The translations under genes and the position numbers were made by a program. This document shows, piece by piece, positions 26,391-26,830 of a stretch of DNA of 64,000 bases. The stretch lies in the NCBI GenBank assembly GCA_014155875.1, contig JACEFZ010014528.1:39073-103072 (forward strand), in the 5' to 3' direction. Origin of the DNA: Cepaea nemoralis (lineage: Eukaryota > Mollusca > Gastropoda > Stylommatophora > Helicidae). Position 1 is the stretch's first letter; each line of letters begins with the position of its first letter. The notes below the pieces were generated by a model. It did not search any database. It saw only the letters and a list, made by a program, of their open reading frames with translations, and was not told where the DNA came from.

Positions 26391-26739
26391 TATCTGGTTG
26401 ATCCTGCCAGTAGTCATATGCTTGTCTCAAAGATTAAGCCATGCATGTCTAAGTTCACACTGTCTCACGGTGAAACCGCGAATGGCTCATTAAATCAGTC
26501 GAGGTTCCTTAGATGACACGATCCTACTTGGATAACTGTGGCAATTCTAGAGCTAATACATGCTTACCAAGCTCCGACCCTCGCGGAAAGAGCGCTTTTA
26601 TTAGTTCAAAACCAATCGTCGTTGCCCTTCGCGGGGCGCGGCGTTCCCACTGGTGACTCTGGATAACTTTGTGCTGATCGCATGGCCTTACGTGCCGGCG
26701 ACGCATCTTTCAAATGTCTGCCCTATCAAATGTCGATGG
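26391..26739 (+). rRNA. 18S rRNA, 5' fragment (about 349 nt)
   Basis: It begins with CTGGTTGATCCTGCCAG, the nearly universal eukaryotic SSU start, and carries GTCATATGCTTGTCTCAAAG, GCGAATGGCTCATTAAATCA, TGGCAATTCTAGAGCTAATA and TCTGCCCTATCAA. It stops after the block TGTCGATGG, where normal 18S would continue GTAG. What follows is unrelated to rRNA. It is therefore a truncated pseudogene fragment that cannot make a ribosomal subunit. Small differences from typical SSU (for example TATCTGG at the start) are visible. Confidence 0.97.
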
Positions 26740-26830
26740 CTCCCCCGATGTGTCTCCACCTTGCCGTGGTGGGGGAGCTTGCGTGTCCCATCGACCCCAT
26801 GTGCTTGCCGATGGGTGAAAACTACATATC
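26739..26830 (+). ncRNA. HDV-like self-cleaving ribozyme candidate at 18S/element junction
   Basis: Folded by hand as a nested double pseudoknot. P1: 26739-26746 (GCTCCCCC) with 26771-26778 (GGGGGAGC), 8 bp. P2: 26747-26752 (GATGTG) with 26825-26830 (CATATC), 6 bp with one G-U. P3: 26756-26759 (CCAC) with 26766-26769 (GTGG). Loop L3 is CTTGCC, and its GC (26763-26764) can pair with GC at 26781-26782 to form P1.1. P4: 26787-26793 (CCCATCG) with 26809-26815 (CGATGGG), 7 bp. J4/2 is A-rich and includes C26822 as the candidate catalytic cytosine. Predicted cleavage is 5' of G26739, at the end of the 18S sequence. P1 is one pair longer and J4/2 longer than in HDV. R2-type elements are known to carry such ribozymes at their rDNA junction. 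Confidence 0.8.

What the first reader, a model, noticed from the sequence alone, without database searches (positions are those of the whole stretch)
26739..26830. HDV-like double-pseudoknot ribozyme exactly at an 18S rRNA/retroelement junction
Seen directly: five helices can be paired in the nested HDV order. P1 8 bp (26739-26746 with 26771-26778), P2 6 bp (26747-26752 with 26825-26830), P3 4 bp (26756-26759 with 26766-26769), P1.1 2 bp (GC at 26763 with GC at 26781) and P4 7 bp (26787-26793 with 26809-26815). The predicted cleavage site is 5' of G26739, the last base that still matches 18S. Known: R2 elements in 28S use such ribozymes to free their RNA from the rRNA co-transcript. Inference: an 18S-inserted element in this lineage uses the same device. 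Caveats: P1 is one pair longer than in HDV, and J4/2 has extra bases before the candidate catalytic C26822.
Basis: partly seen in the sequence, partly recalled or inferred. Interest (0 to 1): 0.9.

Follow-up and report, generated by a model that had tools for sequence, protein, structure and literature searches.

The report
Self-cutting RNA in a mobile element
The first 131 bases of a dispersed, protein-less mobile element with thousands of copies in this animal genome fold like a self-cutting RNA of the hepatitis-delta type, and the places where copies begin point to a cut at one exact base; the copy seen here belongs to a minority still joined to ribosomal RNA.

Summary
It spans 26740-26870: P1 7 bp, P2 8 bp (26749-56/26863-70), P3 3 bp, a large P4 domain, J4/2 C26857-UAA. 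It is not shown to be an R2/R8-type 18S element. It is a dispersed non-autonomous retroelement with target-site duplications and an (AAG)n tail: its first 26 bases occur 3,747 times exactly, and 181 exact 18S/element junctions exist (about 5%). Of 40 copies examined, 28 begin at or next to C26740 (21 of 24 with a measured duplication exactly there); 12 keep a pre-rRNA leader (5'ETS-like + 18S nt 1-349). The window copy is one of these: a retrocopy of an uncut chimeric RNA inside another LINE. An 18S insertion with a 12-bp duplication is suggested by 3' junctions at two loci. Cutting was not measured, and the 18S flank can fold against the ribozyme. HDV-like ribozymes in R2, hydra R8 and SIDEs are known; this dispersed, sometimes rRNA-headed form looks like a new variant.

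The parts
25959..25971 (+). left 13-bp target-site duplication AAATTGTAAAAAG (G25971 may also be the first base of the leader)
   Evidence: identical to 27849-27861; single copy in the empty-site paralogue 37458-37557
25972..26390 (+). 5'ETS-like leader; class A copies begin here or at G25971. That it is the 5'ETS is inferred from its place before 18S nt 1
   Evidence: 11 of the 39 fetched copies plus the window carry it; 9 of 12 further copies chosen by the 18S/element junction show its start at the expected place
26391..26739 (+). 18S rRNA nt 1-349 (5' part)
   Evidence: Rfam RF01960, 130.9 bits; 153.2 bits from 26394; uninterrupted 18S continues GATGG-TACGTGACATGCC in 3 of 4 places read
26740..26870 (+). 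HDV-like ribozyme; predicted cut between G26739 and C26740
   Evidence: fold, covariation, descriptor, 5' ends of copies
26740..26746 (+). P1 5' strand CTCCCCC
   Evidence: pairs 26771-26777; 3 of 7 pairs changed on both sides, 100% of cells paired
26771..26777 (+). P1 3' strand GGGGGAG
26749..26756 (+). P2 5' strand TGTGTCTC
   Evidence: pairs 26863-26870; 2 of 8 pairs changed on both sides, 87.5% of cells paired
26863..26870 (+). P2 3' strand GAGACACA
   Evidence: single changes that break a P2 pair in 4 of 40 near-identical copies (26865 in 1, 26867 in 3)
26758..26770 (+). P3 (26758-60/26768-70) and L3 TTGCCGT (26761-67); candidate U26761/G26766 reverse wobble; G26763-C26778 as possible P1.1
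   Evidence: P3 pairs in all 4 sequences; columns 24 and 27 of A1 (G26763, G26766) invariant
26785..26852 (+). P4 domain; outer stem 26785-26789/26848-26852
   Evidence: pseudoknot-free MFE of 26779-26856 is -30.8 kcal/mol; outer stem pairs in 95% of cells
26857..26860 (+). J4/2 C-U-A-A; C26857 candidate catalytic cytosine
   Evidence: C-N-A-A in window, L018, L038, L027
26740..27848 (+). non-autonomous retroelement; this copy lacks about 253 bp near 27330 that nearly all fetched copies have
   Evidence: copy coordinates; no long frame in six translations
27714..27848 (+). LINE-type 3' tail ending CTCCGGATGAACGAAAAGAAGAAG
   Evidence: 13 further matches of 68-88% identity in the fetched loci, 10 of them ending in an AAG-rich run
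27849..27861 (+). right target-site duplication AAATTGTAAAAAG
37458..37557 (+). paralogous LINE stretch without the insert (empty site)
   Evidence: blastn, alignment to joined flanks

Best explanation
The 5' end (26740-26870) of a high-copy non-autonomous retroelement encodes an HDV-like ribozyme. Where the element is transcribed as part of a longer RNA, the ribozyme cuts just before C26740 and makes the element's own 5' end; a LINE's reverse transcriptase then copies the RNA from its (AAG)n tail into new sites with 10-16 bp duplications. At some time a copy came to lie in an 18S sequence after GATGG. Part of the resulting pre-rRNA/element RNA escaped cutting, perhaps because the 18S flank pairs into the ribozyme, and was copied whole from its 5' end; 181 exact junctions remain, one in the window. 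Shown here: fold with covariation, two classes of 5' ends, duplications. Inferred: cutting activity, helper LINE, the insertion into 18S as the source, the leader start as transcription start.
For: Revised fold on window + 3 diverged copies: 94.6% of 92 cells paired, 6 pairs changed on both sides; 0 of 500 shuffles reach it on four of five measures (26 of 500 on pair types); slid versions pair 35.9-62%. C-N-A-A at C26857 in all 4. Starts of 40 copies (39 fetched + window): 28 at or next to C26740, 12 about 770 bp upstream; of 24 class B copies with a duplication of 8 bp or more, 21 begin exactly at C26740 and 3 have one extra G. That is where P1 is 7 bp. Classes A and B mix in the tree: at least 4 label changes over well-supported branches, 9 by parsimony. 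3,747 exact 5' 26-mers and 181 junction 27-mers, reversed controls 0. Element 3' end + AAATGTCGATGG + TA at two places.
Against: No cutting was measured. Class A copies were not cut, although the ribozyme bases covered by the query are the same. In 26700-26900 the pseudoknot-free MFE fold (-81.5) pairs 18S 26732-26739 with 26788-26795 and breaks P1; imposing P1+P3+P4 costs about 9 kcal/mol there and about 3.4 in 26730-26880 and 26740-26880, P2 not counted. P1.1 has one standard pair (G63-C78; U62.U79). L3 U is G in L018; P2 fails at one pair in L038 and three in L027, and P4 at one in L027. Four of 40 near-identical copies have a change in the P2 3' strand that breaks a pair. No Rfam HDV family matches. 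The 40 copies were ranked by identity to 26739-26860, so lack of variation there is no evidence and copies with G before C26740 are favoured. Only 4 sequences carry the covariation. At the two loci the 5' side is not 18S+ribozyme where looked for.
Confidence: 0.8

Rival explanations
1. An R8/R2-like element that inserts specifically into 18S and lives there; dispersed copies are by-products.
For: Junction at GATGG^TA; hydra R8 lies in 18S (passage) and R8 sequences were among those analysed by Eickbush 2013 (passages); classes A and B mix in each of three subfamilies.
Against: 181 exact junctions against 3,747 exact 5' ends; duplications at unrelated sites; no long open frame.
Confidence: 0.06
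2. The 5' end at C26740 is a transcription start (internal promoter), and the fold is incidental.
For: A fixed 5' end alone would also fit this.
Against: Changes on both sides in P1 and P2 and an HDV-type core exactly there.
Confidence: 0.08
3. Class A arose by template jumping: the reverse transcriptase reached C26740 and went on to copy a pre-rRNA fragment ending at 18S nt 349, rather than from an element lying in 18S.
For: Template jumps of R2 to U12 and tRNA sequences are reported (PMC3414825, passages); L022 and L048 show the leader joined at other 18S positions; no assembled ordinary 18S unit with the element was seen.
Against: 181 copies share one exact junction, in three subfamilies; two loci show element 3' end + the 12 bases of 18S that end at the junction + TA, as an insertion with duplication would leave, though their 5' side is something else.
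Confidence: 0.18
4. The pairing is a chance fold.
For: Topology-only descriptor gives 0.5 hits per shuffled 64-kb strand (10 shuffles).
Against: Strict descriptor 0 of 60 shuffles; covariation; location at the 5' ends of copies.
Confidence: 0.02

Closest known systems
R2 ribozyme and R2 or R2/R1 SIDEs of Drosophila (PMC3774820: abstract, sections 12, 14-17 and passages; PMC3414825: passages)
   Same: HDV-like ribozyme at the 5' end; for SIDEs also a short element without protein whose 3' end uses another element's machinery; release from an rRNA co-transcript
   Different: those sit at fixed 28S sites; this family is dispersed, has thousands of copies and duplications at unrelated sites
R8 of hydra, 18S-inserted R2 relative (PMC5035012 and PMC3774820, passages)
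   Same: next to 18S; R8/hydra is named among elements with drawn ribozyme structures (supplementary figure not seen)
   Different: R8 is described as an R2 lineage with 18S target; here no protein and no site specificity. Whether the 18S site is the same was not tested
HDV-like ribozymes of L1Tc/ingi elements in trypanosomatids (PMC4035085, start of abstract in a search listing)
   Same: HDV-like ribozyme in dispersed retroelements, releasing RNAs from co-transcripts
   Different: other hosts and elements; no rRNA leader known to me
SINEs with RNA-gene heads (tRNA, 7SL, 5S, snRNA; recalled)
   Same: RNA-derived head and LINE-type tail in dispersed copies
   Different: class A head is a pre-rRNA 5' end, and the 5' end of most copies lies at a predicted ribozyme cut

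Membership tests
HDV-like ribozymes | nested double pseudoknot P1-P2-P3-P1'-P4-P2' | tested here: met
HDV-like ribozymes | P1 of about 7 bp starting at the cut | tested here: met
   7 bp from C26740, where class B copies begin; two more pairs are possible with the 18S bases of the window copy
HDV-like ribozymes | P1.1 of two pairs | tested here: inconclusive
   only G63-C78 is standard; U62.U79 is not (sequence)
HDV-like ribozymes | catalytic C followed by N-R-A in J4/2 (motif recalled) | tested here: met
   C26857-U-A-A; C-N-A-A in all 4 sequences
HDV-like ribozymes | U.G reverse wobble in L3 | tested here: inconclusive
   U61/G66 in window, L038, L027; G61 in L018
HDV-like ribozymes | match to a curated covariance model | tested here: not met
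   no HDV family at E up to 10
HDV-like ribozymes | self-cutting in vitro | not testable with these tools
   -
R2/R8 elements | ORF with zinc fingers, RT and restriction-like endonuclease (recalled) | tested here: not met
   no long frame in 26740-27848; a full-length partner was not looked for genome-wide
R2/R8 elements | insertion confined to one rRNA gene site | tested here: not met
   3,747 exact 5' ends, 181 exact 18S junctions; unrelated duplications
SIDE / SINE-like non-autonomous retroelement | no protein, LINE-type 3' tail, target-site duplications | tested here: met
SIDE / SINE-like non-autonomous retroelement | identified helper LINE | not tested
   tail shared with other elements, none with a protein identified

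The most novel reading that the evidence does not exclude
Pre-rRNA 5' ends serve as a mobile head: retroelements beginning at one fixed base of the 5'ETS (with 18S of varied length, then the ribozyme element or scrambled rRNA pieces) form a large dispersed class made from Pol I transcripts, and the HDV-like ribozyme acts as a switch between headed and headless progeny. The ETS query gave 1,824 first-look candidates, of which 40 were scored and all 40 begin at query nt 1-2.
Probability: 0.3. Interest if true: 0.8.

Novelty: new variant of a known kind. Interest (0 to 1): 0.63.

Why it matters
If the ribozyme cuts as proposed, the genome holds a record of cut and uncut RNAs: thousands of copies whose 5' ends tell where, and roughly how often, one ribozyme cut in vivo. 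That makes co-transcript processing of retroelements measurable from sequence. It would also put an HDV-like ribozyme in a very abundant dispersed short element, and show pre-rRNA leaders spread through a genome by retrotransposition.

Tried and rejected
Rejected: the window copy as an rDNA locus. Set aside: insertion of the element into an already scrambled rRNA element; that scrambled joint occurs exactly only at the two loci that also carry the element's 3' end. L039 looked like an autonomous partner because it lacks the 3' part; it shows no suitable frame. Rfam: no HDV match. IMG/VR scan for an 18S stretch: 0. Papers: searches listed none whose title or abstract start describes this family; open-licence papers only. 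PMC13188248 (passages) holds no '18S' in its main text. The strict descriptor was written with the fold in view.

Limits: the 40 copies are the best 40 of 1,001 candidates. Left out of the 5'-end tally: L013 and L039 (no 3' end found), L014 (duplication of 5 bp), L040 and L043 (none found), and the window. L030 and L031 share one duplication and may be one insertion. Of 12 junction-picked copies 3 showed no leader start in the 40 bases read; these 12 were plus-strand places from the first 100 listed. The two loci are not among the exact 5' junctions listed in contig order, and 111 bases read about 1.3-1.4 kb upstream are LINE-like and unrelated sequence, so their 5' junction is unknown; for this I lowered the best explanation from 0.83 to 0.80 and raised template jumping to 0.18. 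The 181 junctions require exact 18S bases, so the share of class A may be somewhat higher.

Full report
What is there. The surroundings change the picture. Positions 25972-27848 are a 1877-bp insert with a 13-bp duplication, AAATTGTAAAAAG, inside a LINE; a paralogous LINE stretch in the same window (37458-37557) lacks it. The insert reads: 5'ETS-like leader (25972-26390), 18S nt 1-349 (26391-26739), element (26740-27848). So it is a reverse-transcribed copy of a chimeric RNA, not a piece of the rDNA array.

The ribozyme. The pseudoknot-free MFE fold of 26739-26870 gives P1, a hairpin in it, and a P4 domain, and leaves the stretch after 26853 free. A perfect 8-bp P2 then pairs 26749-26756 with 26863-26870, with C26857-UAAG in J4/2, P3 ACC/GGT directly against P1', and P1 7 bp from C26740. 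A descriptor with these HDV-type rules finds this site alone on both strands of the window; strict shuffles give none (60 windows, 1000 inserts), looser ones 0.13 to 0.5 per strand. The descriptor was written after the fold was seen. Rfam's HDV models do not match.

Covariation. Diverged copies turned up by chance in fetched loci: L018 2274-2427, L038 6647-6800 (-), L027 6707-6859 (-). P1 reads CTCCCCC/GGGGGAG in the window and CCCCTCT/AGAGGGG in L018 and L038; P2 reads GTGTCTC/GAGACAC, GTGTGTC/GACACAC and GTGCGTC/GACGCAC. On alignment A1 the revised fold pairs 94.6% of 92 cells with 6 pairs changed on both sides; no shuffle of 500 reaches this on four of five measures, and slid versions pair 35.9-62%. 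Against: P2 fails at three pairs in L027 and one in L038, P4 at one in L027, L3 U is G in L018, P1.1 has one standard pair, and 4 of 40 near-identical copies carry a P2-breaking change.

Where copies begin. Query 26739-26860 gave 40 scored copies of 1,001 candidates in the window's own 3.47-Gb assembly. The 39 outside the window were fetched. Matches start either at about 25972 or at about 26740 (a few BLAST starts between 26725 and 26738 are flank bases that match 18S by chance): 12 class A including the window, 28 class B. Taking duplications into account, of 24 class B copies with a duplication of at least 8 bp 21 begin exactly at C26740 and 3 have one extra G; of 10 class A copies 6 begin at G25971, 3 have that G within the duplication, 1 differs. 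Of 12 further copies picked by the junction, 9 show the same leader start and 3 do not in the 40 bases read. The class B start is the cut that a 7-bp P1 predicts.

How many. The element's first 26 bases occur 3,747 times exactly; the 18S/element junction 27-mer 181 times; reversed controls 0. So about 5% follow exact 18S, and the 18S link is a side branch. In the tree of 40 copies class labels change at least 4 times over well-supported branches and 9 times by parsimony, so the same lineages gave both forms.

The 18S source. Uninterrupted 18S reads GATGG-TACGTGACATGCC in L063, L064 and L065 and a diverged form in L066; its 23-mer up to GGTA occurs 251 times, while a stretch about 1 kb downstream occurs 12 times, so most of those copies seem partial. 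The element's 3' end followed by AAATGTCGATGG-TA is found at two places, C9034 and C10759: the twelve bases of 18S that end at the junction, as a 12-bp duplication would leave. There the 18S then jumps to its own 3' end and on to scrambled pieces, a joint found exactly nowhere else. But 111 bases read about 1.3-1.4 kb upstream are a LINE-like stretch in one and unrelated sequence in the other, not ribozyme or 18S, so these may be partial read-through copies and their 5' junction is unknown. No assembled ordinary 18S unit with the element was seen. The insertion into 18S is therefore the likeliest source, not a shown one.

The 18S flank. In 26700-26900 the pseudoknot-free MFE pairs 18S 26732-26739 (GTCGATGG) with 26788-26795 (CCATCGAC) and breaks P1; imposing P1, P3 and P4 costs about 9 kcal/mol, but about 3.4 in shorter stretches (P2 is not counted). 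This speaks against efficient cutting in exactly this setting, and offers a reason why these RNAs escaped.

Tail. The last 60-135 bases have 13 further, more diverged matches in the fetched loci, 10 ending in an AAG-rich run, as expected of a LINE tail used by a non-autonomous element. No protein is encoded and the helper LINE is unknown.

Mechanism. The best reading is that read-through RNAs cut themselves before C26740 and the product is reinserted by a LINE; RNAs that began in pre-rRNA and escaped the cut were inserted whole. The window holds one of the escaped. Cutting, helper and pre-rRNA start are inferred.

Known work. R2 elements cut themselves out of 28S co-transcripts with HDV-like ribozymes, at or upstream of the junction; R8 from hydra was among the elements analysed (PMC3774820), and R8 lies in 18S (PMC5035012). 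Drosophila SIDEs carry the R2 ribozyme plus an R2 or R1 3' end, and template jumps to U12 and tRNA are reported there (PMC3414825). So an HDV-like ribozyme next to 18S is not new in kind. New here, as far as searches in open papers show, are the dispersed high-copy setting, the in-genome record of two 5' ends, and the pre-rRNA leaders.

Noticed in passing
L022, reverse strand from about 142: An older chimera: diverged ETS-like leader + 18S to about nt 130 + 3' part of the element.
   Followed up: partly
L048: ETS-like leader + 18S nt 1-24 followed by a scrambled mosaic of ETS and rRNA-like pieces without the ribozyme; 4 other places show the same spacing of pieces.
   Followed up: partly
window 26732-26739 and 26788-26795: The last 8 bases of the 18S part are complementary to 8 bases in the element's P4 region, a possible off-switch for the ribozyme in the 18S setting.
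   Followed up: partly
window 28921-31134: 737-aa frame with reverse transcriptase and RNase H domains.
   Followed up: no
window 43883-45951 and 48606-50666: 2-kb direct repeats, 97.9% identical, flanking a 435-aa frame with a weak PNMA match below its cut-off (46127-47434); may be an LTR element.
   Followed up: no
window 39125-40045: 306-aa frame with a DDE_3 transposase domain.
   Followed up: no
window 56816-63998: 52-bp satellite array, about 125 copies to 63322 by TRF, self-similar to 63998.
   Followed up: no
window 13010-16137 and 17833-21021: 3-kb inverted repeat, 92% identical, with a further related copy at 39028-41418.
   Followed up: no
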